Of a DNA stretch of 64,000 nucleotides, positions 1-25,605 are shown piece by piece. Both the position numbers and the translations under genes were made by a program. The DNA lies in NCBI RefSeq assembly GCF_002941025.1, contig NZ_PTJS01000001.1:1736001-1800000 (forward strand), in the 5' to 3' direction. How positions within the stretch are numbered: the stretch's first letter is position 1; each line of letters begins with the position of its first letter. The DNA is from Streptomyces sp. QL37. GTDB lineage: Bacteria > Actinomycetota > Actinomycetes > Streptomycetales > Streptomycetaceae. The notes beneath the pieces are model-generated. The model saw only the letters and a list, made by a program, of their open reading frames with translations, was not told the origin of the DNA and searched no databases.

Positions 1-2970
1 CAGGGTGAGTTCGGTGACGTGTCCGCAGCCGAGGTCGTGGCCGGCGCTCAGCGCCAGCTCGACCAGAGCGGTGCCGGGCAGCAGGGTGGTGCCGGAGACC
101 GCGTGGTCGGCCAGCCAGGGCGTGGTGGACAGCGAGAGCCGGCCGGTGAACAGCGTGCCGCCGCCGGCGACCGGGACGGCCGCGCCCAGCAGCGGGTGGC
201 CGGCGCTCCGGAGACCCGCGGCGGTGACGTCGCCGGCGGCCGCGGACCGGCCGAGCCAGTAGCGCTCACGTTGGAAGGCGTAGGTGGGCAGGTCCGCGGT
301 CCGCACCTGCGTCCCGGCGAACACCGGGGACCAGTCGACCGGGACGCCGGCCACGAACGCCTCGCCCAGCGAGGTGAGCAGACGTCCGGCACCTCCGTCG
401 TCACGGCGCAGCGAGCCGAGGCCGGTGACGGCCGCGTCGGCGGCGTCGGCGGTCTCCTCGATGCTGTTGAGCAGGACCGGATGCGGACTGCACTCGACGA
501 ACACCCCGTAGCCTGCGGCCAGCAGGGTCCGGGTGGTCGGCTCGAACAGGACGCTCCGGCGCAGGTTGGTGTACCAGTAATCGGCGTCCAGCGTGGTGGT
601 GTCCAGCACGCTGTTGGTGACGGTGGAGTAGAAGGGCACGTCGGCGGGGCGCGCTCGTACGTCCGCGAGGTCCGTGAGGAGCCGTTCGCGGATGGACTCG
701 ACGTGGGCGCAGTGCGAGGCGTAGTCCACCGGCAGCCGTTTGGCGCGTCCGCCGTCGGCGACGATCGTCTCGCGCAGGGCGTCGAGGGCGTCGGCGTCCC
801 CGGAGAGCACCACCGAGGAGGCGCCGTTGACCGCGGCCACGGCGACCCGCCCGTCGTGGGCGGCGACGAGCTCGCGTGCCCGGGACTCGGGCAGGGCCAC
901 CGACATCATGCCGCCCTGGCCGGAGAGCGCCTCGGCGATCGCCTGGCTGCGCAGGGCCACGACGCGGGCCCCGTCGGAGAGACTGAGCGCGCCTGCCACG
1001 CAGGCAGCGGCGATCTCTCCCTGGGAGTGGCCGATGACGGCGGCGGGACGCACACCGTGCGCACGCCACACCTCGGCCAGCGACACCATGATCGCCCACA
1101 GGGCGGGCTGCACGACGTCCACCCGTTCCAGCGGGCGGCGTTCGCGCACGGTCCCGAGGAGATCCCAGTCGGTGAAGGGCGCGAGGGCCTCGGCGCAGTC
1201 GGCCATGGTGGCGGCGAACACCGGGGAGGCGTCCAGCAGGTCGGCTGCCATGCCTGCCCACTGGGAGCCCTGCCCGGGGAAGACGAACGCGATGCGGGAC
1301 TCCCCCGCCGGTGCGCCGCGCACCACGCCGGTCGCCGGGTCGCTCTCGGCCAGGGCGGTGAGGTCGGCGGTCACCGCGGCCAGGTCCGCACCGACGACGA
1401 CGGCCCGCCGGTCCAGGGCGGCGCGGGTGGTGGCCAGGGTGTGGGCGACGTCGGGCACCGGATCGGTGCCGGCCTCCAGGTGGTCCAGGAGGCGGCGGGC
1501 CTGGGCGGCCAGTCCCGGCTCGTCACGGGCGGACAGCACCAGGGGCAGAGGGCGGTCCCAGACCGGCTCCTCGTCGCGCGGCTCGGGTTCGGGGGCCGCC
1601 TCGACGATGACGTGGGCGTTGGTGCCGCTGATCCCGAAGGAGGACACGGCGGCGCGGCGGAGCTCCCCGGGGGCGGGCCACTCCCGCGGCTCGGCGAGCA
1701 GTTCGACGGCGCCGGCCTCCCAGTCGACCTGGGTGGTGGGCTGTCCGGCGTGCAGGGTCCGGGGCAGCCGGCCGTGGCGCATGGCCATCACCATCTTGAT
1801 GACTCCGGCGACTCCGGCGGCGGCCTGGGTGTGCCCGATGTTGGACTTCACCGAGCCCAGCCACAACGGCTCCTCGCGGTCCTGGCCGTAGGTGGCCAGG
1901 AGAGCCTGGGCCTCGATCGGGTCACCGAGCGGGGTGCCGGTGCCGTGTGCCTCGACGGCGTGGACCTGACGGGGTTCCAGGCGGGCGTCGGCGAGGGCGG
2001 CGCGGATGACGCGTTGCTGGGAGGGGCCGTTGGGGGCGGTCAGGCCGTTGGAGGCGCCGTCCTGGTTGACGGCGGTGCCCCGTACGACGGCGAGCACGCG
2101 GTGGCCGTTGCGGCGGGCGTCGCTCAGCCGTTCCAGGAGCAGCATCCCCACGCCCTCGCCCCAGCCGGTGCCGTCCGCGCCCTCCGCGAACGACTTGCAG
2201 CGGCCGTCCAGGGCGAGGCCGCGCTGGCGGGAGAAGTCGATGAAGGTGTCGGGGGTGGACATGACGGTCACCCCGCCGGCCAGGGCGAGGCCGCACTCAC
2301 CGGTGCGCAGGGCCTGCACGGCCAGGTGGAGGGCGACCAGCGAGGAGGAGCAGGCGGTGTCGATGGTGACGGCCGGGCCCTCCAGCCCGAGGGTGTAGGA
2401 CACGCGGCCGGAGGCGACGCTGCCGAGGTTGCCGTTGCCGAGGTAACCCTCGACGCCTTCGGGAACATCCGTGAGCCAGCTGCCGTAGTCGTGGTACATG
2501 ACGCCGGCGTAGATGCCGGTGCGGCTGCCGCGCAGGGTGTGCGGGTCGATGCCGGCGCGTTCGAACGCCTCCCAGGCGGTCTCCAGCAGCAGCCGCTGCT
2601 GCGGGTCCATGGCGACGGCCTCGCGAGGGCTGATGCCGAAGAACCCCGGGTCGAACCGCGGTGCGTCGTGGAGGAATCCGCCCTCTCGCACATGGGTGCG
2701 GCCCGGCGCGTCGGGGTCGGGGTCGTAGATCGCGTCGACGTCCCAGTCCCGGTCCGCGGGGAAGTCACCCACGGCGTCCACTCCGGCGTCGACCAGCTGC
2801 CACAGCTGTTCGGGCGTGCTGACGCCGCCGGGGTAGCGGCAGCTCATGGCGACGACGGCGACGGGCTCGTGCGCCGCTTCGGAGATCCGGTCGTTGTTCC
2901 GGCGCAGCCGCTCGTTCTCGAGCATGGCCTGGCGCAGCGCCTCGACGATCTCCTCGACAGATGTGTCCAC
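1..2970 (-). CDS. Type I modular polyketide synthase, N-terminal part (runs off window)
   Basis: Extends a polyketide chain as the protein acting after the PKS at 3096-13970. It opens at a GTG with AGGGAG about 11 nt upstream. Residues 1-27 form a charged helix ([16 protein letters not shown]...) typical of an N-terminal docking domain. A ketosynthase follows (from about residue 35) with active-site DTACSSS, EAHGTGT and KSNIGHT. The acyltransferase has GHSQGE and a YASH specificity motif, which by the established rule predicts methylmalonyl-CoA. A dehydratase then starts with an intact HxxxGxxxxP motif ([13 protein letters not shown]) near the window edge. The reductive domains and any further modules are off-window. 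The 990 codons seen contain no stop. Part of the macrolactam cluster; it probably docks to the C-terminal tail of the preceding PKS. Confidence 0.95.
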
Positions 2971-3055
2971 GGTCGGTGTCGCTCCCTGCTGACTCGGCGG
3001 CGCTGATGATGCGGTGAAGGTGGGGATGCGGTGATGGTGCGCCGGAAGCGGATCG

Positions 3056-3089
3056 CCGGTGCCGGACGCGGCGCGGCGTCCGGCACCGG
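3056..3089 (-). terminator. Strong hairpin between the two PKS genes
   Basis: A perfect 14-bp inverted repeat (CCGGTGCCGGACGC, 6-nt loop, and its complement) begins 6 nt after the stop codon of the upstream PKS, in the 125-bp gap before the next PKS start. There is no U-tract, as is common in Streptomyces. It could end or attenuate transcription, or protect mRNA, between two genes that must both be made. Which of these applies is not visible from sequence. Confidence 0.6.
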
Positions 3090-3095
3090 GGCGGG

Positions 3096-13970
<10,875 letters not shown>

Positions 13971-14046
13971 CCACGCATCTCCACTTTCGACCGACACCGT
14001 TTTTCCACCTTTTTTCTCACGGTAATGACGACCCCTGGAGGCCCAC

Positions 14047-14067
14047 ACCCTTAGGCACCCCTAGGGG
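14047..14067. promoter_or_regulatory. Operator-like direct repeat upstream of the first PKS
   Basis: ACCCTTAGGC followed directly by ACCCCTAGGG gives two half-sites at 10-bp period; the second lies in a perfect CCCCTAGGGG palindrome. It sits 77-97 bp upstream of the PKS ATG and just beyond the stop of the glutamate mutase E gene. The same repeat occurs at three other cluster promoter positions, so I infer a cluster-specific regulator site. Confidence 0.6.
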
Positions 14068-14089: not shown

Positions 14090-15343
14090 TTACGGAAAGG
14101 CGTTGTGGTCGTCGAACGAACGCCGGACGTAGGACAGGGAGGCGAGCAGCTCCGCGGAGGTGACGGTGTGGGCCGGGCGCGCGTCGACGGCGCCGGACAG
14201 CGGCATCTTTCCCACGTCGGACCAGCACAGCCGGCCGTCCTCGGCGATATAGCTCCGGCTCAGTCCGGCATTGTCGGGATGCAGGCAGTAGGGCACGTCC
14301 AGCCGGCCCTCGGAGAACGCCTTCAGCAGTGCGGTGCCGAGGTCGTCGTCCAGGTTCAGCACCGCGTCGACCAGCGCGTACGCCTCGGCGTACGTCTCCG
14401 TCCCGGTGCCCTCCAAGGGGTCCTGGGCGGTGCGCGCGGCGACCGCGGCCGCGTATTCCAGCGCGGACACGTTCTCCGCCACCGACGGAATACGCCGGGA
14501 TTCCGCGACGGTTTTCACGATGAGACGCTCGGAGCCGCTCCCGACGGCCAGTTCGGCGGCCTGCGCGAGCAGTCGGCGGGCGCCGTGCTCGGTTTCGGGG
14601 AACAATCCCATATAGGCGTAGACGACCACGTGCCATTCGGTGTCCGAAAGGAACCGCGCGCACAGGCTGCGTAACGCCGCGACCGCTTCGGAGTCCTGAC
14701 GCCGATTCGTCTGCTGGGCGTAACTCACCGAAATGCTCCGGATTCCGTGCCGGCGGAAGAACAGCGCCTCGAGCACGCTCACCGCGACGAGCAGGCCGGG
14801 CGGGCAGAGCTGGCCGAGCACACACCCCCCGAAGGTCTCCAGGTGCGGTTCGGCGCCGGTCCGGCGGAGCGTGGCGAAGTGTTCGCAGGATTCCGCCCAG
14901 TGGGCGACGGACTCGCGCAACGGGACTCTGCCGTACGGGAGGCAGTAGGAGACGGGCCCGCCCTCCGAGGCGTCGAGCCCCACGGCCGTCAGTGCCCGGA
15001 AGATGTGCTGGGGCGCCGCCGAGCCGTGCCGCACCTGCACCGGGAAGTCCGGCCCGTGGATGCCGTCCAGGACCCGGCGCGTGGTGGCCGTTTCGTGGCT
15101 CACCAGCGGATAGCCGTTGAGGTCGACCCCTTCGAGGACGGCGAGTTGCGCCGACTCCAGGTCGCCGACCCGCGTGTAGCTGTCCAGGGTGAGAGTGCCG
15201 ACGGTCGTCGCGTCGGCGTTCCGGGTGGCGAGCAGCCCGGCGCGCATGCGCTGCGGGCTGCTCATTCCCATCCGGGGCTGCACCACCAGCCGGCCGGCGT
15301 CGTGGGCCCGGCGCACGAACGCGCCGAATCCGGCACCGGTCAC
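14090..15343 (-). CDS. Glutamate mutase (methylaspartate mutase) large subunit, GlmE/VinI-like
   Basis: Catalytic E subunit of a B12-dependent glutamate mutase that rearranges L-glutamate to (2S,3S)-3-methylaspartate, the first step to a 3-aminoisobutyrate-type starter. The 417-aa protein is shorter than catabolic GlmE (about 480 aa) but has the TIM-barrel character of the family, with stretches such as GLLATRNADATTVGTLTLDSYTR and HGSAAPQHIFRA. The GTG start overlaps the stop of the S-subunit gene by 4 bp (GTGA), the usual arrangement for obligate partners. Neighbouring genes match the vicenistatin starter set, which favours a biosynthetic over a catabolic role. Substrate is inferred from context. 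Confidence 0.88.
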   Translation of the reverse strand: MTGAGFGAFVRRAHDAGRLVVQPRMGMSSPQRMRAGLLATRNADATTVGTLTLDSYTRVGDLESAQLAVLEGVDLNGYPLVSHETATTRRVLDGIHGPDFPVQVRHGSAAPQHIFRALTAVGLDASEGGPVSYCLPYGRVPLRESVAHWAESCEHFATLRRTGAEPHLETFGGCVLGQLCPPGLLVAVSVLEALFFRRHGIRSISVSYAQQTNRRQDSEAVAALRSLCARFLSDTEWHVVVYAYMGLFPETEHGARRLLAQAAELAVGSGSERLIVKTVAESRRIPSVAENVSALEYAAAVAARTAQDPLEGTGTETYAEAYALVDAVLNLDDDLGTALLKAFSEGRLDVPYCLHPDNAGLSRSYIAEDGRLCWSDVGKMPLSGAVDARPAHTVTSAELLASLSYVRRSFDDHNAFP

Positions 15344-15789
15344 ACCAGGGCCCGCTGGGGCAGGGCGTCGAGCATCCGGCGGAAGGCCGCTATGCCGTCG
15401 GCCGACTCCTCGAACACCTCGTCGTAGCCGGCCGCGCGCAGTGCCGCCGCCTCCTCGTCGCCGCAGGGCCCGGCGATGCCGAGCTTGCCGCCGATGACGA
15501 CGGGCACGGCGCCGAGGCCGGGGTGCTCACGCAGCCGGGTGACGGTGCGCATGCCGTCGTGGTAGCCGTGTCCGTTGACGCTGCTGATCACGATCAGTGC
15601 GGGGTCGTGCGCGAGGGCCTCGCCGATCAGCAGGTCCTCGGGGACGCAGGGGCCCAGGTTGACCACGCGGTGGCCGTGCTCCTCGACGAGGAGCTGGAGG
15701 TAGACCAGGTTCCAGGTGTGCGAGTCGGAGATGCCGCCCGCCACGAGGACGGGCTGGTCACCGGGGGCGGGGGTGAGGGAATCGCTCAT
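15340..15789 (-). CDS. Glutamate mutase B12-binding small subunit, GlmS/VinH-like
   Basis: The 149-aa protein has the flavodoxin-like cobalamin fold of GlmS: VLVAGGISDSHTWN near the N-terminus, ISSVNGHG in the middle (the SxL region) and VVIGGKLG (the GG motif). The usual DxHxxG cobalamin motif reads DSHTWN, so Asp and the cobalt-ligating His are kept but the glycine is Asn. It partners the GlmE-like protein encoded just downstream with a 4-bp overlap. Its ATG overlaps the decarboxylase stop by 1 bp (TGATG). The start was set by that overlap and because the upstream in-frame stretch does not resemble protein. Confidence 0.88.
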   Translation of the reverse strand: MSDSLTPAPGDQPVLVAGGISDSHTWNLVYLQLLVEEHGHRVVNLGPCVPEDLLIGEALAHDPALIVISSVNGHGYHDGMRTVTRLREHPGLGAVPVVIGGKLGIAGPCGDEEAAALRAAGYDEVFEESADGIAAFRRMLDALPQRALV

Positions 15790-17027
15790 CACAGGGCCTG
15801 TCCGTGTTCGTAGGTTCGGGTGTGCTCGATGCGGGACACCGAGACGAGGTCGTCGCCGCGGACGATGACCTCCGTGGGGGCGGGCCTGCCGAGGAACATC
15901 AGGAGGCTGGCGGTGGGCCCGTAGGAGCCGGCGTTGGGAACGGTCAGCAGGTCGCCGGGGGCCGGGTCGGACAACGGGACCTGGCGTCCGAGCAGATCGC
16001 CGGGCGTGCACAGCGGTCCGGCGAGCTGGACCGGGACTCCGTCGGTGCCGACGGACTCCTGCGGCTCGACGGAGACCGGCAGGATGCGGCCGAGGCCGGA
16101 CATGCCGCCGAAGGTGTTGATGCCGGCGTCGAGGACGACGTAGCGGGTGCCCCGGCTGTCCTTGACGTTGACGACGCTCGTGAGCAGGGTGCCGCTGTCG
16201 GCGACCAGGTACCGTCCCGACTCGCAGGCGATGCGCGGGGCACCGTCGCGCCAGCCGGGGAAGTGCTCGTCGAGCGACGTGGCCAGGGCTTCGCGCAGTT
16301 CGCCGTAGACCGGGCGCCGTCCCTGGACCGCGTACGGTGCGGCGAAGCCCCCGCCGAGGTCGACGATGCGGAAGTCGACGCCCAGCTCCCGCTGGAGCGC
16401 GGCGGCGGTGGCGATGGTGTGCTGGAACTCGGCGATGAGGCTCGCCTCGTCCTTGGCGTTGCTCAGCGGGAAGAAGTGCAGGCCGACCAGGGTGGTGCCG
16501 GGTACGTCGCGCAGTTCCGCGGCGAGGCCGGGCAGGGTCTCGCCGTCGAACCCGAACTGTGAGGGCACCCCGGTCATGCGGATGCTGGTGGCGGCGGCCC
16601 CGGTGGGGTTGTTGACCCGGATCAGGCAGTCGGCCGTGATGCCGAGCCGTACCGCCGTCTCACCGACGTGCCTCAGGTCGCCGGGCGACTCCACGGAGAA
16701 CGTCCGCACGCCCCGGGTCATGGCCTCGGCCAGCTCCTCGGTGGTCTTGCCGGGGCCGGTGTAGAGGATCTCGGTCCCCTCGTAGCCGGCCCGCAGGACG
16801 GCGTCGAGTTCCCCGACGGAGCTGATCTCCGCGCGGCAGACCCGGGGACCGCCGGCCCGCATCTCACGAAGGATCTCGGGGTGCGGGTTGGCCTTGGCCG
16901 CGTAGTACACGGCCACCTCTTCGGGCAGCGCGGCGAACAGCTCGTCCCGCGCCGCCGCGACCCGGTCCAGGTCGTAGACGTAGGAGGGGGTGCCGAAGCG
17001 CCGGGCGAGGTCGGTGGTGCCGGTCAC
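15789..17027 (-). CDS. PLP-dependent fold-III decarboxylase (VinO-like)
   Basis: This 412-aa enzyme belongs to the diaminopimelate/ornithine decarboxylase family (alanine-racemase fold). The PLP lysine is K45 in YYAAKANPHP. The glycine-rich phosphate loop is DLGGGFAAPY, a CESGRYLVADSG segment follows, and the C-terminal NAGSYGPTAS is the usual active-site strand. In the vin pathway VinO decarboxylates 3-methylaspartyl bound to VinL, giving 3-aminoisobutyryl-ACP; position within the starter cassette suggests the same here. The GTG start overlaps the preceding adenylation gene by 4 bp. A free-amino-acid decarboxylase for primary metabolism is less likely, given context. Confidence 0.88.
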   Translation of the reverse strand: MTGTTDLARRFGTPSYVYDLDRVAAARDELFAALPEEVAVYYAAKANPHPEILREMRAGGPRVCRAEISSVGELDAVLRAGYEGTEILYTGPGKTTEELAEAMTRGVRTFSVESPGDLRHVGETAVRLGITADCLIRVNNPTGAAATSIRMTGVPSQFGFDGETLPGLAAELRDVPGTTLVGLHFFPLSNAKDEASLIAEFQHTIATAAALQRELGVDFRIVDLGGGFAAPYAVQGRRPVYGELREALATSLDEHFPGWRDGAPRIACESGRYLVADSGTLLTSVVNVKDSRGTRYVVLDAGINTFGGMSGLGRILPVSVEPQESVGTDGVPVQLAGPLCTPGDLLGRQVPLSDPAPGDLLTVPNAGSYGPTASLLMFLGRPAPTEVIVRGDDLVSVSRIEHTRTYEHGQAL

Positions 17028-18550
17028 GGCGTGGTTCCTTCCAGAAGGCTGAGGAGCTGCTTGCGGTCGTGCTTGCCGTGTGCGGTCAGCGGCAGTTCGT
17101 CGACGACACGGCTGACGCCGGGCACCTTGGCGGGCTCCAGCCGGAGGGACAGCTCCCGGAGCAGCACGTGCGGGTCGATGCCGCCCTCGGCGAAGACCGC
17201 GAGATCGCGGCCGGGGGCGGGTGGCAGGACCGCGGCGGCCCTGACACCGGGTACGTCCGTGGCCGCGGCCTCGATCTCGGTGGTGCTCATGCGGACGCCC
17301 TTGTGCTTGAACATGTCGTCCCGGCGGCCCTCGTAGTACAGGTACCCCTCCTCGTCGACGTGTCCGAAGTCGCCTGTGTGCAGGCGCAGTCCGCCGTCCG
17401 GCGCGGGCCGGAAGGCGCGCGCTGTCTGCTCGGGCGCGCGCCAGTAGCCGGGCATGACGTGGGGGCCTTCGACGACGATCTCCCCGGTCTGCCAGGGCGG
17501 CAGCGCGTTGCCGTCGTCGTCGACGGTGAAGGCCCGGGTGCCGGGCAGCGGGCGGCCGACGGACTCGGGCCTGGCGTCCTGCTGGTCGGGCGGCAGGACG
17601 GAGACGCGCTTGCACTCGGTCTGGCCGAACTGGATGACCACCTCGGATCCGGGGAAGGCCGTGCGGAGCCCGTCGGCGGTGGGCTTCGGCAGCGCGGCCC
17701 CGGTGTTGGTGAACATGCGGACCGTGGAGTCCTGCCGCGGTTCGCGTTCGGCCAGCGCGCAGATCATGGTGGCCAGGGACGGCACGATGGGGACGACGGT
17801 GGCCCCGGTCTCGCGGATGCGGCGCAGCAGCACCAGGTCGGACTCGCCGTCGGCGAGCACGATCTCGCTGCGGCCGGCCGCGGTGAGCAGCACCTTGTAG
17901 AGGCCGTAGTCCCAGGAGATGGGGAAACGGCAGAAGACCACGTCGTCGGGGCGGTAGCCGAGTTCGAGGTTGATGGCCTCGGTGGCGAAGACCATCCGGC
18001 CGTGCGGGCAGACGACGGCCTTGGGGGCCGCCGTGGAGCCGGAGGTGTAGACGAGGACGGCGAGGTCGTCGCTGTGGACGGGATCGCCGTCGCCCCGGGC
18101 GTCCTTGTCGCGCAGGTCGGTGACCGCCTGCCAGACCTCGTCCAGGCCGAGGACGGTGACCGGCTCGGCGAGCGTGGCGACGCGGGACACGGCGGATCCG
18201 TCGACGACCACCAGTGACGGCTCGGAGTTCTCGACGACGGCCGTGAGGTGGTAGTCCTTCATGCCGGTGTTCACGGGGACGAGGACGGCGCCGCGGCGGG
18301 CGGTGCCGTACAGCAGGGCGACGAGCTCGCGGGTGCTGGCCAGTTGCACCAGGACGCGGTCGCCGTGGCCGATGCCCTGGGTCCGGAGCCACGCGTCGAC
18401 GGCGTGGCTCCAGGCGGTGAGTTCCCGGTAGGTCCACCGCCCGGTGCCGTCGGTGACGGCCGCCGCGTCGGGGTGCTCGGCGGTGGCCTCGTCGAGCAGG
18501 TCGTGTATCCGGGCGTCGGTGCGGGCCTGCGCTGTCGGTTGACCGTTCAC
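17024..18550 (-). CDS. Stand-alone adenylation enzyme, 3-methylaspartate type (VinN-like)
   Basis: ANL-family enzyme of 508 aa with P-loop YTSGSTAAPK, FGQTE, HTGDFG and the C-terminal catalytic Lys in GKHDRKQ. It activates an amino acid as the AMP ester and loads it on a carrier protein. D214 (ISWDYG) and the adjacent pair K314-R315 (TECKRVS) fall where, from memory, VinN uses D230, K330 and R331 to hold the amino group and the extra carboxylate of 3-methylaspartate; the offset is a constant 16. This distinguishes it from the neighbouring adenylation gene. GTG start, 4-bp overlap with that neighbour. Carrier partner is inferred to be the ACP at 20141-20392. Confidence 0.88.
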   Translation of the reverse strand: MNGQPTAQARTDARIHDLLDEATAEHPDAAAVTDGTGRWTYRELTAWSHAVDAWLRTQGIGHGDRVLVQLASTRELVALLYGTARRGAVLVPVNTGMKDYHLTAVVENSEPSLVVVDGSAVSRVATLAEPVTVLGLDEVWQAVTDLRDKDARGDGDPVHSDDLAVLVYTSGSTAAPKAVVCPHGRMVFATEAINLELGYRPDDVVFCRFPISWDYGLYKVLLTAAGRSEIVLADGESDLVLLRRIRETGATVVPIVPSLATMICALAEREPRQDSTVRMFTNTGAALPKPTADGLRTAFPGSEVVIQFGQTECKRVSVLPPDQQDARPESVGRPLPGTRAFTVDDDGNALPPWQTGEIVVEGPHVMPGYWRAPEQTARAFRPAPDGGLRLHTGDFGHVDEEGYLYYEGRRDDMFKHKGVRMSTTEIEAAATDVPGVRAAAVLPPAPGRDLAVFAEGGIDPHVLLRELSLRLEPAKVPGVSRVVDELPLTAHGKHDRKQLLSLLEGTTP

Positions 18551-20115
18551 TGCGACTCCTGCCGTCCTTCGGTCCTGGTCCCGGCTCCGGCGGGCTGCTG
18601 TCGCAGGGCCGCGGCGCGGGAGGTGAGCTTCCTGCGATCGGTCTTGCGGTTGGGGTTGAGCGGAAGTGTGTCCAGGTGGTGGTAGGCCCGGGGGACGACC
18701 GCGGCCGGCAGCAGTTCCCGCAGGTGACGGGCGAGCCGGGCGGCCGGCACCGGGTCGCCGGTGTGGAAGACGGCGAGTTCGACCGTGCCGTCCACGGGCA
18801 CGGCGACGGTCACCGCGTCCTCGACGCCCGGGCAGGTGCGTACCGCGGCGTCGACCTCGGCCAGTTCCGTCCGGATGCCGTGCACCTGGACCTGGGCGTC
18901 CTGGCGGCCCAGGTACAGCAGTCCGTCGCCCTCGGTGCTGCGGACCCGGTCGCCGGTGCGGTAGTAGCGCAGGCCGTCGCGTTCCAGGAAGCGTCCGGTG
19001 TCGTCGGCCGGGTCGAGGTAGCCGGGGGTCAGCTGGGGTCCGGCGATGCACAGTTCGCCCTCGCCGGTCGTGCTGGGCGAGCCGTCGGCGTCCAGCAGCA
19101 GGACCGTGTGGCCAGGGTTCACGGTCCCGATCGGCACCATGCCGTGCAGGTGCCGGTGGCCCGGCCGCCAGCGGTGCGCGGTGACGGTGATGGTCAGCTC
19201 GGTCGGCCCGTAGATGTTCTCCAGCACCGTGCCGGAGGCCGCGGCCGCCCAGTCCTCGGCGTCCCGGCAGCTGAGCGCCTCCCCCGCGAAGAAGCTTCTG
19301 CGCAGTGAGGACAGCGCACCGGCTGAAAGGCCGCCGGTGCGCCGCACCAGGGAGATCGCGCTGGGCGTGGAGAACCACACGGTCAGCCCCTGCTCGGCCA
19401 CGAACTCGGGCAGGCGCGCGTACTCCCGCGCGGGGACGGGGACGACGGTGGCTCCGGCCCCCCAGGCGCAGAACAGGTCGAACATCGCGCAGTCGAAGTT
19501 GAGGTCGAAGGTCTGCGAGAAGACGTCCTCGGGCCCGAAGTCGTACCGCTCGTCGAGCAGGGAGAAGTAGTGCGCGGTGTTGGCGTGGGTGACCGGCACG
19601 CCCTTGGGCCGTCCGGTGGAGCCGGAGGTGAACAACACGTAGGCGGTGTCGTCCGGGCGGGCGGGCATCGGTGCCTTCAGCACGCTGTCGGGGTCGACCG
19701 CGAGTGCCGGCATCGGCTGCCCGCCGGGGGCGAACAGGGTGGGCAGGGTGACGCCGTCCTCGTGCAGCGCGGTCAGCGCGGGCAGGGCGTCGTCGTCGGC
19801 GAGCAGGGCGCCCACTCCGGCGGCCTCGATCATCTGCCGGGTGCGGGCGGCGGGGAAGGCCGGCTGCAGGGGGACGACGGTGACCCCGCTGTAGAGACCG
19901 GCCAGCAGGCTCGGGTATGCCGAAGCTCCCTTGCCTGCCAGCACGCCCACGGCGGGCGGCTGGTCGGGGAGACCGGACAGCAGGGAGCCGGCGAGCAGGA
20001 GGGCCCGCTCGTGCAGTTCGCGGTAGGTGTGGGCGGCGCCGTCGGCCCGCAGCGCGGGCCGGTCGGGCGCCAGGGCCAGCCCGCGCAGGAACCGTCCGGA
20101 CAGGGCTCCGTCCAT
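18547..20115 (-). CDS. Stand-alone adenylation enzyme, capping amino acid type (VinM-like)
   Basis: ANL-family protein of 522 aa. Motifs: LFTSGSTGRPKG, ENIYGPTE, GELCIAGPQLTPGY, YRTGDRV, and a terminal catalytic Lys in NPNRKTDRRK. It lacks the K-R pair of its neighbour and is closer to NRPS A domains. In the vin pathway VinM adds L-alanine to the amino group of 3-aminoisobutyryl-ACP, so this gene probably makes the protected dipeptidyl starter. The amino acid cannot be read reliably here (substrate region FDLNFDCAMF). The ATG at 20115 is chosen; an in-frame TTG at 20127 with GGGACGG just upstream is possible. It lies 25 bp after the ACP gene. Confidence 0.86.
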   Translation of the reverse strand: MDGALSGRFLRGLALAPDRPALRADGAAHTYRELHERALLLAGSLLSGLPDQPPAVGVLAGKGASAYPSLLAGLYSGVTVVPLQPAFPAARTRQMIEAAGVGALLADDDALPALTALHEDGVTLPTLFAPGGQPMPALAVDPDSVLKAPMPARPDDTAYVLFTSGSTGRPKGVPVTHANTAHYFSLLDERYDFGPEDVFSQTFDLNFDCAMFDLFCAWGAGATVVPVPAREYARLPEFVAEQGLTVWFSTPSAISLVRRTGGLSAGALSSLRRSFFAGEALSCRDAEDWAAAASGTVLENIYGPTELTITVTAHRWRPGHRHLHGMVPIGTVNPGHTVLLLDADGSPSTTGEGELCIAGPQLTPGYLDPADDTGRFLERDGLRYYRTGDRVRSTEGDGLLYLGRQDAQVQVHGIRTELAEVDAAVRTCPGVEDAVTVAVPVDGTVELAVFHTGDPVPAARLARHLRELLPAAVVPRAYHHLDTLPLNPNRKTDRRKLTSRAAALRQQPAGAGTRTEGRQESQ

Positions 20116-20140
20116 GGTGGCGTCCAAGGGGTCCGTCCCG

Positions 20141-20392
20141 TCAGCTCGTGGTGCGCTGGAGCATGCCCTCGACGGTCTCCCACAGCGTGCCCGCGCTGCG
20201 GAAGGTGCCCATGGTCAGCGCGCTGTCACGGAAGCGCACCTGGTACGCGTCCTCCAGCGTGCCGAGCAGCTGGACCATGCCCAGCGAGTCCAGGCCGAGG
20301 TCCTTCAGCTCGTCGTCGGTGGTCAGCGGCTCCTGCGGGGGCAGGAACGGCAGGAAGGTGCGGAGTATCTCTTCGAACTGGTCGTCCCACAT
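20141..20392 (-). CDS. Discrete acyl carrier protein (VinL-like)
   Basis: An 83-aa acidic carrier protein with the phosphopantetheine site at S36 (DLGLDSLGM). It carries the methylaspartyl, aminoisobutyryl and dipeptidyl intermediates between the adenylation enzymes, decarboxylase and trans-acyltransferase. The ATG is preceded by AGGAGA at a 6-nt spacing, which decides the start over an in-frame ATG 17 codons upstream. It stands between the acyltransferase and the VinM-like gene, as in the vin set. Its short size and lone position exclude a PKS fragment. Confidence 0.9.
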   Translation of the reverse strand: MWDDQFEEILRTFLPFLPPQEPLTTDDELKDLGLDSLGMVQLLGTLEDAYQVRFRDSALTMGTFRSAGTLWETVEGMLQRTTS

Positions 20393-20426
20393 GGGTGTCT
20401 CCTGCGGATAGGGCGGATCGGACGGT

Positions 20427-21362
20427 TCAGGCGGCGCGTGCACGGCGCCGGGGGGTCATCGCCAGGCGGGGGTGGGCGGCGACGACCTCGAAGGTGCGGG
20501 TGGTACAGGGAACCCGGCCGAAGAGACTGTCGGGGCCGGCGACGCACATCCGCCGGACTCCGGCGTCCCGCAGGGCCGTGGTGACGCTCGGCCAGTTCAT
20601 GGGGTGGTCGAAGCCGTCGAGCAGCATGGTGCGCAGCTCCGCGCCCGTGTGCAGCAGCCTGCCGTCCTGGTCGGCGACGACCGGCAGGGAGGGATCGGCG
20701 AAGGTGTAGCGCGAGATGACCTCGCGTTCCGCCTTGGCCCGCAGCGGCGCGAACGCGGACGCGTGCATGGGGGGACGCATGGTGTACAGGGGGAGGCTGC
20801 CGATGCCGCGCAGCCGCTCCCGCATCCACTCCACACGGTGTTCGGCGAGGGAGACCATCCAGAAGCCGTCGTCGATGTGGCAGGAGATCTCGTGCCACTC
20901 GCCGGCTTCGCCGAGTTCGGCGAGGATCGGGTCCAGTTCCTCGCTCGGCGCGCGGACGAAGGACAGGGTGACGATGTCCTTGTGGTGTTCGGCGAAGTAC
21001 GACTCGAGGCACCGCGCGATACCGGCGGTGAGCCGGACCGCGTCGGGCAGGTCGAGGGCGCCGGTGTAGGCGAGGGCGGCCTTCTCCCCGAAGCTGGGAC
21101 CGGCCACGATGTCGGGGACGACGTCCAGGTGCTCGGTCGCCCAGTACGCGCTGGCCAGGCAGTTCACGAAGAAGGCGACCTGGGCGGCTTCCGAGTAGTC
21201 GCCCTCGGAACGGCGGAAGGCGTCCACCAGCGAGTAGCCCAGGGCGTCGTCGGCGACGGCGACCAGGTTCCGGGCCACGGGGTTGGCCACCATGAAGCGG
21301 CCCACGTCGGCGAAGGGGACGGGCCCCATGCCGGGGAAGACGAGAGCGGTGTCGTACGCCAT
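20427..21362 (-). CDS. Discrete trans-acyltransferase for the starter unit (VinK-like)
   Basis: A 311-aa malonyltransferase-fold acyltransferase with nucleophile S90 in GPSFGE and a candidate catalytic H200 (RPPMHASAF). The usual malonyl-binding Arg context of PKS ATs is not evident. VinK moves the dipeptidyl starter from VinL to the loading ACP of VinP1; this cluster has exactly those two partners, the free ACP (35 bp downstream) and a PKS that opens with an ACP lacking its own AT. Start: ATG after a purine-rich GGGGAC. An extender-loading AT is the alternative, but the PKS modules already have their own. Confidence 0.87.
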   Translation of the reverse strand: MAYDTALVFPGMGPVPFADVGRFMVANPVARNLVAVADDALGYSLVDAFRRSEGDYSEAAQVAFFVNCLASAYWATEHLDVVPDIVAGPSFGEKAALAYTGALDLPDAVRLTAGIARCLESYFAEHHKDIVTLSFVRAPSEELDPILAELGEAGEWHEISCHIDDGFWMVSLAEHRVEWMRERLRGIGSLPLYTMRPPMHASAFAPLRAKAEREVISRYTFADPSLPVVADQDGRLLHTGAELRTMLLDGFDHPMNWPSVTTALRDAGVRRMCVAGPDSLFGRVPCTTRTFEVVAAHPRLAMTPRRRARAA

Positions 21363-21427
21363 GGCGGTGTCCCCGCCCCCTCTCACTGTGGTCTGCGACG
21401 CCCGGCCCGGCGTCGTGGCGCGGCGCG

Positions 21428-22345
21428 TCACAGGCCGGCGAGGAAGTCGGTCAGCACCTCGAAGAACCGGTCCGGTTCCTCCAGGTGCGGCAGGTGGCTG
21501 GACTCCTCGAAGATCTCCCAGCGGGCCCCCGGGACACGGTCCATGTAGGGCTGGACGACGGCCGGGGTGGCCTCGTCGTGACGTCCGCTCAGGAGCAGCG
21601 TGGGTGTCCGGATGGTGTCCAGTTCGTCGACGATCGACCAGTCCTTCAGGGAGCCGATCACGTGGAACTCGGTGGGGCCGTTCATCGCGTAGTAGACCGT
21701 CGGGTCGTTGTAGATCTCCATGAAGGAGGAGAGGAAGTCGCGGGGCCACGGGGTGAGGCGGCACACGTGGCGGTCGTAGAAGACCCGCATCGCGGCCAGG
21801 TACTCCTCGGATTCGTAGGTGCCGGCCCTCTCGTGCCGTACGAGGGCTTCCTGCACGTCCGGCGGCAGGGCGGCCCGCAGCCGGGCCATCTCCTGGAGCC
21901 AGATGGGGTACGAGGCGGGCGCGTTGGCCACGACCAGACCGCGGAGGCCGGGGGGACGGCCCATGGCGTGCCGTGCGCTGAGCGGGCCGCCCCAGGACTG
22001 GCCGAACAGGACGTAGTCGTCGGCGATGCCCAGTTCCCTTACGAGATTTCCGAGTTCGTCGAGGAAGAGGTCGACCGTCCAGAAGTCCGGGGCGCTGTCG
22101 GGGAGATGGGTGGAGCCCCCGTTGCCGAGCTGGTCGTAGTGGACGACCGGCCAGCCGTACTCGGCGAGGCGGGCGAGCGGCAGCAGGTAGTCGTGCGTAC
22201 TGCCGGGGCCGCCGTGGACGACGACGACCGCGGGGCGCCCCGCCCCGAGTTCCCCGGTCACGCGGTACCAGGTCCGGTACTCCCCGAAGGGGACGGTGCC
22301 CTTGACGCCGGGCACCAGACCCTGCGCACTGGGTTTCGGGGACAC
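21428..22345 (-). CDS. Proline-iminopeptidase-family hydrolase (VinJ-like amino-cap remover)
   Basis: Alpha/beta hydrolase of about 305 aa: oxyanion-hole HGGPG (residues 44-48), nucleophile S117 in GQSWGG, acid Asp in SGRHDEAT and His in SSHLPHLEEP. VinJ of this family removes the N-terminal alanyl group from the finished polyketide chain, freeing the amine for lactam formation. It is the first gene of the minus-strand starter operon. The GTG at 22345 is chosen because AGAGG lies 8 nt upstream; GTG at 22354 overlaps that site. Its presence supports the dipeptide-protection route rather than direct loading. Confidence 0.85.
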   Translation of the reverse strand: MSPKPSAQGLVPGVKGTVPFGEYRTWYRVTGELGAGRPAVVVVHGGPGSTHDYLLPLARLAEYGWPVVHYDQLGNGGSTHLPDSAPDFWTVDLFLDELGNLVRELGIADDYVLFGQSWGGPLSARHAMGRPPGLRGLVVANAPASYPIWLQEMARLRAALPPDVQEALVRHERAGTYESEEYLAAMRVFYDRHVCRLTPWPRDFLSSFMEIYNDPTVYYAMNGPTEFHVIGSLKDWSIVDELDTIRTPTLLLSGRHDEATPAVVQPYMDRVPGARWEIFEESSHLPHLEEPDRFFEVLTDFLAGL

Positions 22346-22562: not shown

Positions 22563-22580
22563 TAGGGGCACATAGGGGTG
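22563..22580 (-). promoter_or_regulatory. Operator-like direct repeat B in the divergent promoter
   Basis: TAGGGGCACATAGGGGTG on the plus strand is the reverse-strand version: two CCCCTA half-sites at 10-bp spacing (22563 and 22573). It points opposite to site A, which fits one site for each divergent operon. Confidence 0.6.
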
Positions 22581-22706
22581 GGCCATCCCGGGCGCCGCTC
22601 CTTAGCGTGCGGGAAACGGTCGGCGGAAACCGCGCCGGCGCCGGGCCCGGAGCCCTTCCCCGGGGTGAACCGCGCGGCCCGCTCCCTCCCGTGCGAAGAG
22701 GACACC

Positions 22707-23939
22707 ATGACTGCACCTGCCGAAGCGGCCGCCGAGGGCGCCCTCCCGGAGTTCCCGATGCGTAGGGCCTGCCCCTTCAGTCCGCCGGCCGCCTACGCCG
22801 GGCTGCGCGAGAACGAACCGGTCTCCCGGGCGCAGCTGAAGGTCAACGGCAAGCCGGCCTGGCTGGTCACCCGCCACGACCTGTACAAGAAGGTGCTCGG
22901 CGACGCGCGGGTGAGCGCCAATCTGAAGCTGCCGGGCTACCCGCTCCAGGTGCCGGTGCCGGAGGAGACGCTCCAGTCGGTCCCCCTCACCTTCCTGTCC
23001 ATGGACCCACCCGACCACACAGTGCAACGCCGCATGCTGGCACCGGAGTTCAGCGTGCGCCGGATGCGCGAGCTGCGCACCCGGGTGCAGGAGCTCGTGG
23101 ACGAGCAGATCGACGACATGCTCGCCAAGGGCTGCGACAGTCCGGTGGACCTCGTCACGGCCCTGGCGCTGCCGGTGCCGTCCCTGGTGATCTGCGAACT
23201 GCTCGGCGTCCCCTACGAGGACCACGCCCGGTTCGAGCAGTGGGCGTGGGCCATCATGAACCACGAGGTCAGCGACGAGGACCGGGGCATGGCCCACTAC
23301 GAGCTGGACCGCTACGTCGACGGGCTGGTCACCGCGAAGGAGAGCGAGCCCGGCGACGACATGATCAGCCGGCTGATCGAGTTCAACCGGGAGACTCCGG
23401 CGGTGGAGCACTCGGACATCGTCAGCATGTCCAAGCTGATGCTGGTCACCGGGCACGAGACCACGGCGAACATGATCGCGCTGGGTGTGCTGGCGCTGCT
23501 CGAACACCCGGACCAGCTCGCCGCCGTGCGCGAGGAGCCCGAGCTGATGCCACGCGCGGTGGAGGAACTGCTGCGCCTGTTCTCCATCTCGGACGCCGGC
23601 ACCGCGCGCGTGGCCATGGAGGACATCGAGCTCGGGGGTGTCACCATCCGCGCCGGTGAAGGCATCCTGCCGCTGAACAACGCCGCCAACCACGACGAGC
23701 AGGTCTTCCCCGACGCGGACCGGCTGGACGTGCGCCGCGAGGCCCGCAGCCACGTGGCCTTCGGGTACGGCGTCCATCAGTGCGTCGGCCAGAACCTGGC
23801 CCGGATGGAACTCGACGTCGTCTACTCCACGCTGCTGCGCCGGGTGCCGACACTGCGCCTGGCCACGCCGGTCGACGAGCTGCGCTTCAAGGACGACGCC
23901 ATCGTCTGGGGCCTGTACGAGCTGCCCGTCACCTGGTGA
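22707..23939 (+). CDS. Cytochrome P450 (first of a tandem pair)
   Basis: A 410-aa bacterial class I P450: I-helix TGHETTAN, ExxR in VEELLR, and heme loop FGYGVHQCVGQNLAR with the Cys thiolate ligand. AGAGGA lies 7 nt before the ATG. It is strongly similar along its whole length to the next gene (shared FPMRR.CPFS, SRA.LKVNGKPAWLVTRH, SMDPPDHT.QRRML), so the two arose by duplication. It probably oxidises the macrolactam or a late intermediate. It is the first gene of the plus-strand operon that ends with a ferredoxin. Substrate and position of oxidation cannot be read from sequence. Confidence 0.93.
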   Translation: MTAPAEAAAEGALPEFPMRRACPFSPPAAYAGLRENEPVSRAQLKVNGKPAWLVTRHDLYKKVLGDARVSANLKLPGYPLQVPVPEETLQSVPLTFLSMDPPDHTVQRRMLAPEFSVRRMRELRTRVQELVDEQIDDMLAKGCDSPVDLVTALALPVPSLVICELLGVPYEDHARFEQWAWAIMNHEVSDEDRGMAHYELDRYVDGLVTAKESEPGDDMISRLIEFNRETPAVEHSDIVSMSKLMLVTGHETTANMIALGVLALLEHPDQLAAVREEPELMPRAVEELLRLFSISDAGTARVAMEDIELGGVTIRAGEGILPLNNAANHDEQVFPDADRLDVRREARSHVAFGYGVHQCVGQNLARMELDVVYSTLLRRVPTLRLATPVDELRFKDDAIVWGLYELPVTW

Positions 23940-23994: not shown

Positions 23995-25230
23995 ATGACC
24001 CAGTCCGCAGACCCGGCCGGCGGGACGGCGTCGCCGTATCCGCAGTTCCCGATGCGACGCACCTGCCCGTTCAGCGAGCCGCGCGAGTACGCCGGGCTGC
24101 GCGCGGACGAGCCCGTGTCGCGCGCCTCGCTCAAGGTGAACGGCAAGCCGGCCTGGCTGGTGACCCGGCACGAGCACGTGAAGCAGGTGCTCGGCGACCC
24201 GCGGGTGAGTTCCAACCTCAAGCGTCCCGGCTACCCGCACCAGTTCCACATCTCCGAGGAGATGCTGGCCCACGTCCGGCTGATGATGCTGTCCATGGAC
24301 CCGCCGGACCACACCGCGCAACGCCGCATGCTGATACCGGAGTTCACAGCGCGGCGGGTGAAGGAGATGCGTCCGCGGATCCAGCAGATCGTCGACGAAC
24401 GCATCGACGCCATGCTCGCCGCGGGCGGCCCGGTGGACCTGGTCCAGGCCCTCGCCCTGCCGGTGCCGTCCCTGACCATCTGCGAGCTGCTCGGGGTCCC
24501 CTACGAGGACCACGCCCAGTTCGAGGAGTGGTCGGGCGCCCTCATGAACCACGACCTCAGCCCCGAGGAGTACGGGGCGGCGGTGCAGTCCCTGGACATG
24601 TACCTCGACAAGCTGGTCACCCTCAAGGAGACCGAGCCGGGGGACGACCTGATCAGCCGGTTCCTGGAGAAGAACCGCACCGAGCAGGCCGCCGACCACG
24701 TCGACGTGGTGACCATGGCCCGGATGATGCTGGTGGGCGGCCACGAGACGACGGCCAACATGATCGCGCTCGGTGTGCTGGCCCTGCTGGAACACCCGGA
24801 CCAGATGGCCGAGCTCCGGTCGGACCACACCTTGCTGCCGAACGCGATCGAGGAACTGCTCCGGGTCTTCTCCATCTCGGACTCGGGCACCGCCCGCGTC
24901 GCGGTCGAGGACATCGAGGTGGGCGGTGTCACCATCCGCGCCGGTGAGGGCATCCTCGCGCTGAACAACGCGGCCGACCACGACGAGGCGGTCTTCGCCG
25001 ACCCCGGCACCCTCGACTTCCACCGCAAGGAGGCGCGCAGCCACCTCGCCTTCGGGTACGGCATCCACCAGTGCATGGGCGCGAACCTGGCCCGCGCGGA
25101 GCTGGAGATCGTCTACGGCACCCTGCTCCGCCGCGTTCCGGGGCTCCGGCTGGCCGTGCCCGTGGAAGAACTGCGGTACAAGGACGACGCCATGGTCTAC
25201 GGCGTCTACGAACTGCCCGTCACCTGGTGA
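23995..25230 (+). CDS. Cytochrome P450 (second of a tandem pair)
   Basis: A 411-aa P450 with I-helix GGHETTAN, EELLRVF and heme loop FGYGIHQCMGANLAR. It is preceded by GAGGCAG 5 nt before the ATG and lies 55 bp after its paralogue. The close similarity with kept catalytic motifs in both suggests two oxidation sites or two steps on the same scaffold rather than a dying copy. The ferredoxin 26 bp downstream is the likely electron donor. Confidence 0.93.
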   Translation: MTQSADPAGGTASPYPQFPMRRTCPFSEPREYAGLRADEPVSRASLKVNGKPAWLVTRHEHVKQVLGDPRVSSNLKRPGYPHQFHISEEMLAHVRLMMLSMDPPDHTAQRRMLIPEFTARRVKEMRPRIQQIVDERIDAMLAAGGPVDLVQALALPVPSLTICELLGVPYEDHAQFEEWSGALMNHDLSPEEYGAAVQSLDMYLDKLVTLKETEPGDDLISRFLEKNRTEQAADHVDVVTMARMMLVGGHETTANMIALGVLALLEHPDQMAELRSDHTLLPNAIEELLRVFSISDSGTARVAVEDIEVGGVTIRAGEGILALNNAADHDEAVFADPGTLDFHRKEARSHLAFGYGIHQCMGANLARAELEIVYGTLLRRVPGLRLAVPVEELRYKDDAMVYGVYELPVTW

Positions 25231-25256: not shown

Positions 25257-25448
25257 ATGCATGTCACCACGGACCACGACCGCTGCGTGGGCTCCGGTCA
25301 GTGCGCGATGCTCAGCCCCGAGGTCTTCGACCAGGACGACGACGGTCTCGTCGTCGTCCTCCAGGAGAGGCCGGCCGCGGAGCTGCTGGACGATGTCCAC
25401 CGTGCCGCGGACCTGTGCCCGTCACGGTCCATCCACGTCACCGGCTGA
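25257..25448 (+). CDS. 3Fe-4S ferredoxin
   Basis: A 63-aa ferredoxin of the P450-partner type, with cluster ligands in CVGSGQC and a distal CPSRSI (three Cys, pattern C-x5-C...C-P), as in [3Fe-4S] ferredoxins. GGAAG precedes the ATG by 7 nt. It supplies electrons to the two upstream P450s. No ferredoxin reductase is encoded in the window, so a housekeeping reductase must serve. Confidence 0.92.
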
Positions 25449-25605
25449 TCCGTTCCACCCCTCGCGCCGCGGTCCCGTGCGGGCCCGCACCGGCACCGCG
25501 GCGCGGGCGTCCGGCCTGCGTACCGCGGGGCAGCGCCACCCGGCCCACGTACTGCGGGGCGCGCAGTCCGCCCGGCACGATGACGACAACCGAGGACGTG
25601 AACCC

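What the first reader, a model, noticed from the sequence alone, without database searches (positions are those of the whole stretch)
14090..22345. Complete vicenistatin-type beta-amino-acid starter cassette feeding a PKS with a bare loading ACP
Eight consecutive minus-strand genes match, one for one, the functions of VinJ, VinK, VinL, VinM, VinN, VinO, VinH and VinI, and they end at a PKS that opens with an ACP and no loading AT. Most junctions are overlaps (ATGA/GTGA), so the cassette is translated as a unit. This predicts a macrolactam with a 3-aminoisobutyrate-derived starter and a temporary amino-acid cap.
Basis: partly seen in the sequence, partly recalled or inferred. Interest (0 to 1): 0.8.

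Follow-up and report, generated by a model that had tools for sequence, protein, structure and literature searches.

The report
Sceliphrolactam-type macrolactam starter genes
A soil-type bacterium carries a complete, well-known set of genes that turns glutamate into an unusual amino-acid starter for a large ring-shaped antibiotic; the same set is already described in close relatives, so this copy is ordinary.

Summary
Eight minus-strand genes (14090-22345) encode homologues of VinJ, K, L, M, N, O, H and I in that order, followed by a PKS whose first domain is a lone ACP. The junction claim is loose: 4 of 8 overlap, three GTGA and one TGATG, none ATGA. The interpretation (3-methylaspartate to 3-aminoisobutyrate starter, temporary cap) is well supported: five proteins match solved vin proteins best (names recalled), the VinN pocket is conserved bar S299T, and the mutase keeps its active site yet lies apart from five clostridial mutases. 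Beyond the window the cluster follows the published sceliphrolactam (sce) gene table: P450s, ferredoxin, ten modules with methylmalonyl AT in 3 and 8, TE, transporter, two-component pair. SirexAA-E, named in 2018 as holding an sce homologue (PMC5785472), has the same ten modules at 87-94% identity. So it is a new member of a known kind, of low interest. The open point it touches: sce lines are one module short of the eleven extensions needed. No product or activity was tested.

The parts
21428..22345 (-). VinJ/SceF-type amidohydrolase (removes the amino-acid cap)
   Evidence: Pfam abhydrolase; best PDB match 3wmr, 496 bits
20427..21362 (-). VinK/SceG-type dipeptidyl acyltransferase
   Evidence: Pfam VinK_C 109.8 bits; best PDB 5czc, 5czd, 7f2r, 8h6s at 433-435 bits, next 52.8
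20141..20392 (-). VinL/SceH-type stand-alone ACP (GLDSL)
   Evidence: PP-binding; best PDB 5czd chain B 86.9 bits, then 8k4r chain B 86.0
18547..20127 (-). VinM/SceJ-type adenylation enzyme (adds the cap)
   Evidence: best PDB 8k4r 588 bits, then 6akd 569 bits
17024..18550 (-). VinN/SceI-type 3-methylaspartate adenylation enzyme
   Evidence: best PDB 3wvn 590 bits, 3wv4 462, next 209; 53% identity to the 3wvn chain, recalled pocket residues D230, K330, R331 conserved
15789..17027 (-). VinO/SceK-type PLP decarboxylase of the ACP-bound amino acid
   Evidence: Orn/DAP decarboxylase domains; best PDB BtrK, a glutamyl-[ACP] decarboxylase, 186 bits
15340..15789 (-). VinH/SceL-type glutamate mutase S subunit (DSHTWN cobalamin motif)
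   Evidence: B12-binding; D[SA]HTWN in 70 of 70 relatives extracted
14090..15343 (-). VinI/SceM-type glutamate mutase E subunit
   Evidence: Met_asp_mut_E 277.6 bits; 9 of 9 recalled active-site positions conserved, tree; one TTA codon at codon 224
3096..14048 (-). PKS1: loading ACP, then modules 1 and 2 (KS-AT-DH-KR-ACP each)
   Evidence: Pfam, domain scan, no AT before the first KS
1..3099 (-). PKS2, start of (module 3, methylmalonyl-type AT); continues left of the window to C1:1728435; GTGA overlap with PKS1
22578..23939 (+). cytochrome P450 (SceD/E type); the true start is probably further in, since sceD/E are 404-406 aa
   Evidence: Pfam p450; 91-96% identity beside the cassette in HB132, papulosa and SirexAA-E
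23995..25230 (+). cytochrome P450 (SceD/E type)
   Evidence: Pfam p450; 91-95% identity in the same three loci
25257..25448 (+).
   Evidence: Fer4_15/Fer4_13; on the P450 side at 57-89% identity in 15 of 80 cassette loci, and at 35-48% on the other side, just before N, in 10 more

Best explanation
This is the starter-unit half of a sceliphrolactam-type polyene macrolactam cluster in a Streptomyces-like actinomycete. Glutamate mutase (H+I) makes (2S,3S)-3-methylaspartate; N loads it on the free ACP L; O decarboxylates it there to 3-aminoisobutyrate; M caps the amino group with a small amino acid (probably Ala, Gly or Ser); K moves the dipeptide to the lone loading ACP of PKS1; ten PKS modules extend it, J removes the cap and the terminal TE closes a 26-membered lactam; two P450s and a ferredoxin finish it. 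Shown here: gene content, order, homology, conserved residues, module architecture. Inferred from the vin and sce literature: each reaction, the cap, the ring size and the product.
For: Domains and PDB matches; VinN pocket residues; GlmE active site and tree; cassette order JKLMNOHI in 24 of 80 VinN loci, and with L inverted in 24 more; ten modules with YASH-type AT in 3 and 8, no DH found in 6, TE at the end, same domain string in SirexAA-E with PKS identity 87-94%; downstream ABC ATPase, FtsX permease, sensor kinase and LuxR response regulator in sceV-Y order; a LuxR/LAL regulator between PKS2 and PKS3, where sceP stands. Literature: sce gene table, ten modules, methylmalonyl AT 3 and 8 (PMC5785472, parts 1-4 of 6 read); vin logic (PMC11284099, parts 1-2 of 7 read plus passages).
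Against: Identity to the VinN chain is only 53%, and S299 and A300 (numbers recalled) are T and G, although all 80 relatives share that. Seven of 80 VinN loci show no I in the stretch fetched (L044, L062, L065, L075, L076, L079, L083; some stretches are cut by contig ends), so N does not always come with the mutase. In place of sceB and sceA (thioredoxin, MFS transporter) a methylmalonyl-CoA mutase-like gene follows; none of the ten ORFs scanned at 22.6-36.3 kb is an MFS or thioredoxin protein (not every ORF there was scanned). No product is known.
Confidence: 0.93

Rival explanations
1. The cassette makes a different beta-amino acid starter, for example beta-alanine from aspartate as in fluvirucin, and the mutase pair serves something else.
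For: VinN itself accepts Asp with low efficiency and a vinI mutant makes a desmethyl vicenistatin (PMC11284099 passages); a second GlmE/GlmS pair lies about 118 kb away, so the mutase is not unique in the genome; five VinN loci show neither H nor I in the stretch fetched, apart from the cut L044 (L062, L075, L076, L079, L083).
Against: H and I sit inside the same minus-strand run with overlapping junctions, and 72 of 80 VinN loci gave an I homologue over more than 80% of its length. The second pair belongs to a different, PUFA-synthase-like gene set.
Confidence: 0.03
2. An 11-module bombyxamycin/piceamycin/weddellamycin-type cluster rather than a sceliphrolactam-type one.
For: Same starter logic; the wdl cluster has a P450 and a ferredoxin too (PMC11051340, part 1 of 5 plus passages).
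Against: Ten KS domains here, ten in SirexAA-E and ten in a row on one contig of CB01580; methylmalonyl AT in modules 3 and 8 and two P450s as in sce, whereas wdl has eleven modules, one methylmalonyl AT (module 8) and one P450.
Confidence: 0.03
3. A silent cluster that makes nothing under natural conditions.
For: Expression is unknown; a TTA codon in glmE (codon 224) could make the starter pathway depend on bldA (bldA dependence recalled).
Against: No internal stop in the eight cassette genes, and the PKS reading frames run through their modules; active-site residues conserved.
Confidence: 0.05

Closest known systems
sceliphrolactam (sce) cluster of Streptomyces sp. SD85 (PMC5785472) and its named homologue in Streptomyces sp. 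SirexAA-E
   Same: Gene order of the sce table from C, D, E through F-M, N, O, P, Q, R, S, T and V-Y; ten modules, methylmalonyl AT 3 and 8; SirexAA-E PKSs 87-94% identical with the same domain string
   Different: A methylmalonyl-CoA mutase-like gene follows the ferredoxin where the table has sceB and sceA; a stand-alone thioesterase gene follows the response regulator, beyond the end of the table; the SD85 DNA itself was not available for comparison
vicenistatin (vin) cluster of S. halstedii HC34
   Same: All eight starter genes (VinH-VinO); best PDB relatives of J-N are vin proteins (names recalled)
   Different: Four PKSs VinP1-4, a sugar pathway (PMC11284099) and a 20-membered ring (PMC10662134); here six PKSs with ten modules, P450s and ferredoxin
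bombyxamycin/weddellamycin-type 11-module clusters; Amycolatopsis xylanica cluster
   Same: 3-aminoisobutyrate starter cassette, polyene line
   Different: Eleven KS in A. xylanica, one module with a KR lacking the catalytic Tyr; ten KS here
verticilactam cluster (vtl) with ferredoxin VtlF
   Same: P450 plus ferredoxin in a 3-methylaspartate-type cluster; SceC, VtlF's sce counterpart, also converted verticilactam intermediates in vitro (PMC11236979, parts 1-2 of 8 read)
   Different: One P450 there, two here; motif here C-X2-S-X2-C where VtlF has C-X2-A-X2-C; activity not tested
clostridial catabolic glutamate mutase
   Same: Same family and 9 of 9 recalled active-site positions
   Different: Separate clade, branches 5.98 and 4.02 changes per column; far below NCBI equivalog cut-offs

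Membership tests
vin-type 3-methylaspartate/3-aminoisobutyrate macrolactam starter cassette | five common proteins: beta-amino-acid adenylase, free ACP, second adenylase, dipeptidyltransferase, amidohydrolase | tested here: met
   N, L, M, K, J with best PDB matches to chains recalled as the vin proteins
vin-type 3-methylaspartate/3-aminoisobutyrate macrolactam starter cassette | glutamate mutase E and S subunits of the cassette-linked clade | tested here: met
vin-type 3-methylaspartate/3-aminoisobutyrate macrolactam starter cassette | PLP decarboxylase acting on the ACP-bound amino acid | tested here: inconclusive
   homology only: best PDB relative BtrK acts on an ACP-bound amino acid; no VinO chain stood among the 49 matches
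vin-type 3-methylaspartate/3-aminoisobutyrate macrolactam starter cassette | adenylase pocket for 3-methylaspartate (D230, K330, R331; recalled) | tested here: met
   conserved in own and 80 of 80 relatives; S299 is T in own and all 80
vin-type 3-methylaspartate/3-aminoisobutyrate macrolactam starter cassette | loading ACP without AT at the start of the first PKS | tested here: met
vin-type 3-methylaspartate/3-aminoisobutyrate macrolactam starter cassette | measured use of 3-methylaspartate and of the amino-acid cap | not testable with these tools
   needs enzyme assays
sceliphrolactam (sce) cluster type | ten extension modules with methylmalonyl AT in modules 3 and 8 | tested here: met
sceliphrolactam (sce) cluster type | module 6 yields a hydroxyl (implied by the paper's text) and the line ends in a TE | tested here: met
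   no DH found in module 6; Thioesterase domain at the end of the last PKS
sceliphrolactam (sce) cluster type | two P450 genes and a ferredoxin beside the cassette | tested here: met
sceliphrolactam (sce) cluster type | production of sceliphrolactam or a close relative | not testable with these tools
   no culture data; the strain is not named to me
bombyxamycin/weddellamycin 11-module type | eleven extension modules | tested here: not met
   ten KS
fluvirucin type (Asp to beta-alanine) | no glutamate mutase in the cassette (recalled) | tested here: not met
   H and I present
catabolic methylaspartate mutase | score above the NCBIfam equivalog cut-off; clustering with clostridial enzymes | tested here: not met
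   148 of 390 bits (E), 55.7 of 110 (S); tree (five clostridial sequences only)

The most novel reading that the evidence does not exclude
The ten-module line, one short of the eleven extensions that a sceliphrolactam skeleton needs, is a fixed trait of this lineage (own, SirexAA-E and, by KS count, CB01580). The absent ketone-forming module belongs inside PKS3 (the SceQ position): its N-terminal 60 residues (89.4 bits, next 82.0) and its ACP plus C-terminus (169 bits, next 124) both match best the two ends of one two-module protein in the 11-KS A. xylanica cluster, whose second module has a KR without the catalytic Tyr. That would make module 5, rather than module 6, the module used twice. 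The N-terminal margin is slim, and loss or gain is not resolved: single-module proteins with a similar C-terminus also occur outside the sce type.
Probability: 0.3. Interest if true: 0.45.

Novelty: new member of a known kind. Interest (0 to 1): 0.17.

Why it matters
As a finding it mainly confirms annotation: the cluster can be labelled sceliphrolactam type with confidence, and the starter chemistry follows from characterised relatives. Its modest extra value is comparative: it adds another assembly with exactly ten modules, which argues that the missing module reported by Low et al. is real, and it points to PKS3 as the place to test for the repeated extension.

Tried and rejected
Considered and rejected: a different starter (fluvirucin-like Asp route), an 11-module bombyxamycin-type line, and a catabolic mutase (see rivals and membership rows). 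My first pass took the frame 25261-27198 as a 645-aa mutase; its first ~115 residues are the ferredoxin gene and what follows it read in another frame, and the core matches PF01642. My first gene-order count dropped the small ACP through a position filter and was redone with an overlap rule. GC-frame gene calling missed several cassette genes and was only a guide. Comparing single domains of the ten modules with A. xylanica gave no clear one-to-one order; of the pieces of PKS3 compared with A. xylanica, KS, post-AT/DH, DH-KR linker and KR-ACP pieces matched other proteins best and the KR was a tie, so only the N-terminus, AT and C-terminus pointed to the two-module protein. The pattern used for the KR Tyr also flagged own modules 4 and 9 and A. 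xylanica B1 and B3 as lacking it; the printed sequences show a Tyr there and only B2 lacks it. A search for a GlmES plus PUFA-synthase combination in print listed 8 papers, all with zero occurrences of 'glutamate mutase'. The VinN structure paper (PMC4223343) is not held, so D230, S299, A300, K330, R331 and the glutamate mutase active-site numbers are recalled and were placed on the alignments by sequence.

Limits: the 80 VinN loci are the best 80 of 119 confirmed and were found with patterns taken from this protein, so close relatives are over-represented; homologues covering over 80% at over 40% identity with no early stop were extracted for 70 H, 72 I, 80 N, 79 O and 57 M of the 80, the rest being cut, absent or unlike. 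The GlmE tree had 98 rows: own two, 72 locus rows, 19 of the 120 listed proteins (120 of 2622 hits listed) and 5 of the 120 listed, all clostridial; catabolic mutases of other phyla were not sampled. In one search one of 29 handles (L034) was not held, so 28 genomes were searched, the list was cut, and no row of G023 is shown. Papers, by what I saw: PMC5785472 parts 1-4 of 6; PMC11284099 parts 1-2 of 7 and passages; PMC10662134 parts 1-2 of 8; PMC11236979 parts 1-2 of 8; PMC11051340 part 1 of 5 and passages; PMC9230918, PMC10037901 and PMC12159101 passages; the rest search listings only.
Full report
What was checked. The window lies at C1:1736001-1800000 of an 8.78-Mb, five-contig genome. Eight minus-strand genes at 14090-22345 were translated without internal stops. 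Pfam assigns to them, in transcription order, alpha/beta hydrolase, VinK-type acyltransferase, ACP, two AMP-binding enzymes, an Orn/DAP-type PLP decarboxylase, a B12-binding protein and a methylaspartate mutase E chain; the next gene is a 3650-aa PKS with three ACP stretches, of which the first stands before the first KS with no AT in front. Its detail about junctions is loose: M/N, N/O and H/I overlap by GTGA, O/H by TGATG, while J/K, K/L, L/M and I/PKS1 are spaced by 65, 34, 13 and 41 bases. PKS1 and PKS2 also overlap by GTGA.

Which known proteins they resemble. Among solved structures the best matches are 3wmr for J (496 bits), 5czc and its kin for K (435 bits, next family 52.8), 5czd chain B for L (86.9 bits), 8k4r for M (588 bits) and 3wvn for N (590 bits). 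The listing names these generically; that they are VinJ, VinK, VinL, VinM and VinN is recalled, in agreement with the structural work described in PMC11284099. O is closest to BtrK, listed as a glutamyl-[BtrI acyl-carrier protein] decarboxylase (186 bits), which fits VinO's action on an ACP-bound substrate. I is related to clostridial GlmE at only 107 bits.

Starter specificity. I aligned N with the 3wvn chain and with 80 relatives. Identity to the chain is 53.0%. The positions that I recall as D230, K330 and R331 are D, K and R in this protein and in 80 of 80 relatives; S299 is T and A300 is G in this protein and in 80 of 80. One of those relatives is Amycolatopsis rubida DSM 44637 (L086), whose cluster PMC10662134 describes as nearly identical to that of the macrotermycin producer, a 3-amino-2-methylpropionate macrolactam, so the T/G pair is compatible with that starter. 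GlmE keeps all nine active-site positions that I checked, as do all 93 non-clostridial rows (own two included); in a 98-row tree it falls in a 28-row group (SH-aLRT 100), whose locus rows come from VinN cassette loci, and the five clostridial enzymes stand apart (quick method, no bootstrap). Both mutase subunits are far below NCBI's equivalog cut-offs for methylaspartate mutase. The S subunit carries D[SA]HTWN instead of the classical DxHxxG (recalled) in 70 of 70 cassette relatives.

The cluster beyond the cassette. Neighbouring stretches of the genome were read. Domain scanning gives a loading ACP and ten modules: 1-5 and 7-9 KS-AT-DH-KR-ACP, 6 KS-AT-KR-ACP, 10 KS-AT-ACP, followed by a thioesterase domain. 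AT motifs are YASH in modules 3 and 8. A LuxR/LAL regulator lies between PKS2 and PKS3 on the other strand, and after the last PKS come an ABC ATPase, an FtsX permease, a sensor kinase, a LuxR response regulator and a stand-alone thioesterase. On the other side of the cassette are two P450 genes and a 63-aa ferredoxin whose DNA is also the start of a longer false frame. Order, sizes and the module facts agree with the sce table and text of PMC5785472 (parts 1-4 of 6 read), except that sceB and sceA have no counterpart among the ten ORFs scanned there. That paper names SirexAA-E among strains with a homologous cluster; here SirexAA-E shows the same domain string and 87-94% identity across the PKS proteins, and its cassette proteins are 88-96% identical. 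A potato isolate, JH34, is reported with a sceliphrolactam cluster at 92% antiSMASH similarity (PMC10037901, passages); a GlmE listed under that strain name is 95% identical.

How common it is. Cassette order J-K-L-M-N-O-H-I occurs in 24 of 80 VinN loci, and the same order with L inverted in 24 of 80; the other 32 are shorter, rearranged or cut by contig ends, and seven of them show no I. Among 61 genomes (own included) drawn by kinship, 10 have a VinN homologue at E <= 1e-120, of which own and three others are at 86% identity or more. PMC10662134 reports 435 genomes with macrolactam clusters.

Mechanism. The route given under Best explanation is taken from the vin work as reviewed in PMC11284099 and from the sce proposal; nothing in it was measured here. 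The ferredoxin is worth noting: SceC, its counterpart in the sce cluster, converted verticilactam intermediates by [4+2] cycloaddition in vitro (PMC11236979, parts 1-2 of 8 read), so the present one may do more than feed electrons to the P450s. That is an inference by homology.

The open point. Low et al. found ten modules for eleven extensions, showed that a SceQ-SceR fusion still makes sceliphrolactam, and proposed that SceQ or SceR works twice. The present genome, SirexAA-E and, by ten KS in a row on one contig, CB01580 all have ten. In A. xylanica, which has eleven KS, the protein whose two ends best match the two ends of PKS3 here has two modules, the second with a KR lacking the catalytic Tyr; the N-terminal margin is slim (89.4 against 82.0 bits) and several inner pieces match other proteins better. 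With the C-terminal 180 residues of PKS3 as query, all 7 sce-type genomes among the 28 searched have a one-module frame (1825-2092 aa); in the other 21 the best listed frames vary widely, two-module sized (3294-3610 aa) in G005, G012, G014, G029 and G031, single-module sized (1751-1874 aa) in G013, G016, G017, G026, G027 and G030, and other lengths or no listed row in the remaining ten. So the place of the difference is suggested, its direction is not. PMC10662134 says that mutations in specific PKS regions drive ring size and points, in Amycolatopsis, to PKS3, but that protein carries the last modules, so it is not the one meant here. The subscription paper on tripartilactam (Hwang et al. 2020) was seen only as a reference, and I cannot say whether it settles the matter; the searches that would have shown an answer in print are (open-licence papers only).

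Verdict. The finding is true and correctly read, and ordinary: a new member of a known kind with published, closely similar relatives.

Noticed in passing
G000:C1:1631985-1633837 (L004:15985-17837), outside the window: A second glutamate mutase pair, its E subunit 56% identical to the window's, beside a PUFA-synthase-like gene set (KS-AT protein, triple FabA protein, PfaD-like protein, two acyl-CoA dehydrogenases, PPTase, semialdehyde dehydrogenase). Homologues at 63-67% identity occur in 5 of 60 relatives. Product not identified.
   Followed up: partly
window about 25609-27198, +: A methylmalonyl-CoA mutase-like gene next to the cluster, 91% identical to a paralogue at C1:5150318; at the same place HB132, papulosa, SirexAA-E and MMG1121 have shorter, gapped, more divergent copies (55-67%).
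   Followed up: partly
window 14090-15343, codon 224 of glmE: A TTA codon in the mutase E gene, shared with the three closest loci (L011-L013) but absent from the other 19 of the 22 nearest loci examined; it could put the starter pathway under bldA control.
   Followed up: partly
L032 and 23 other cassette loci: The VinL-type ACP gene lies inverted between K and M in 24 of 80 loci, while in 24 others, the sce type among them, it runs with its neighbours.
   Followed up: no
window 15340-15789 and 70 relatives: The cobalamin motif of the cassette's S subunit is D[SA]HTWN, with N where the classical DxHxxG (recalled) has G, in 70 of 70 relatives.
   Followed up: partly
L106:7329-12758 (PKS3): One-module PKS at the SceQ position whose two ends best match one two-module protein of an 11-KS cluster.
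   Followed up: partly
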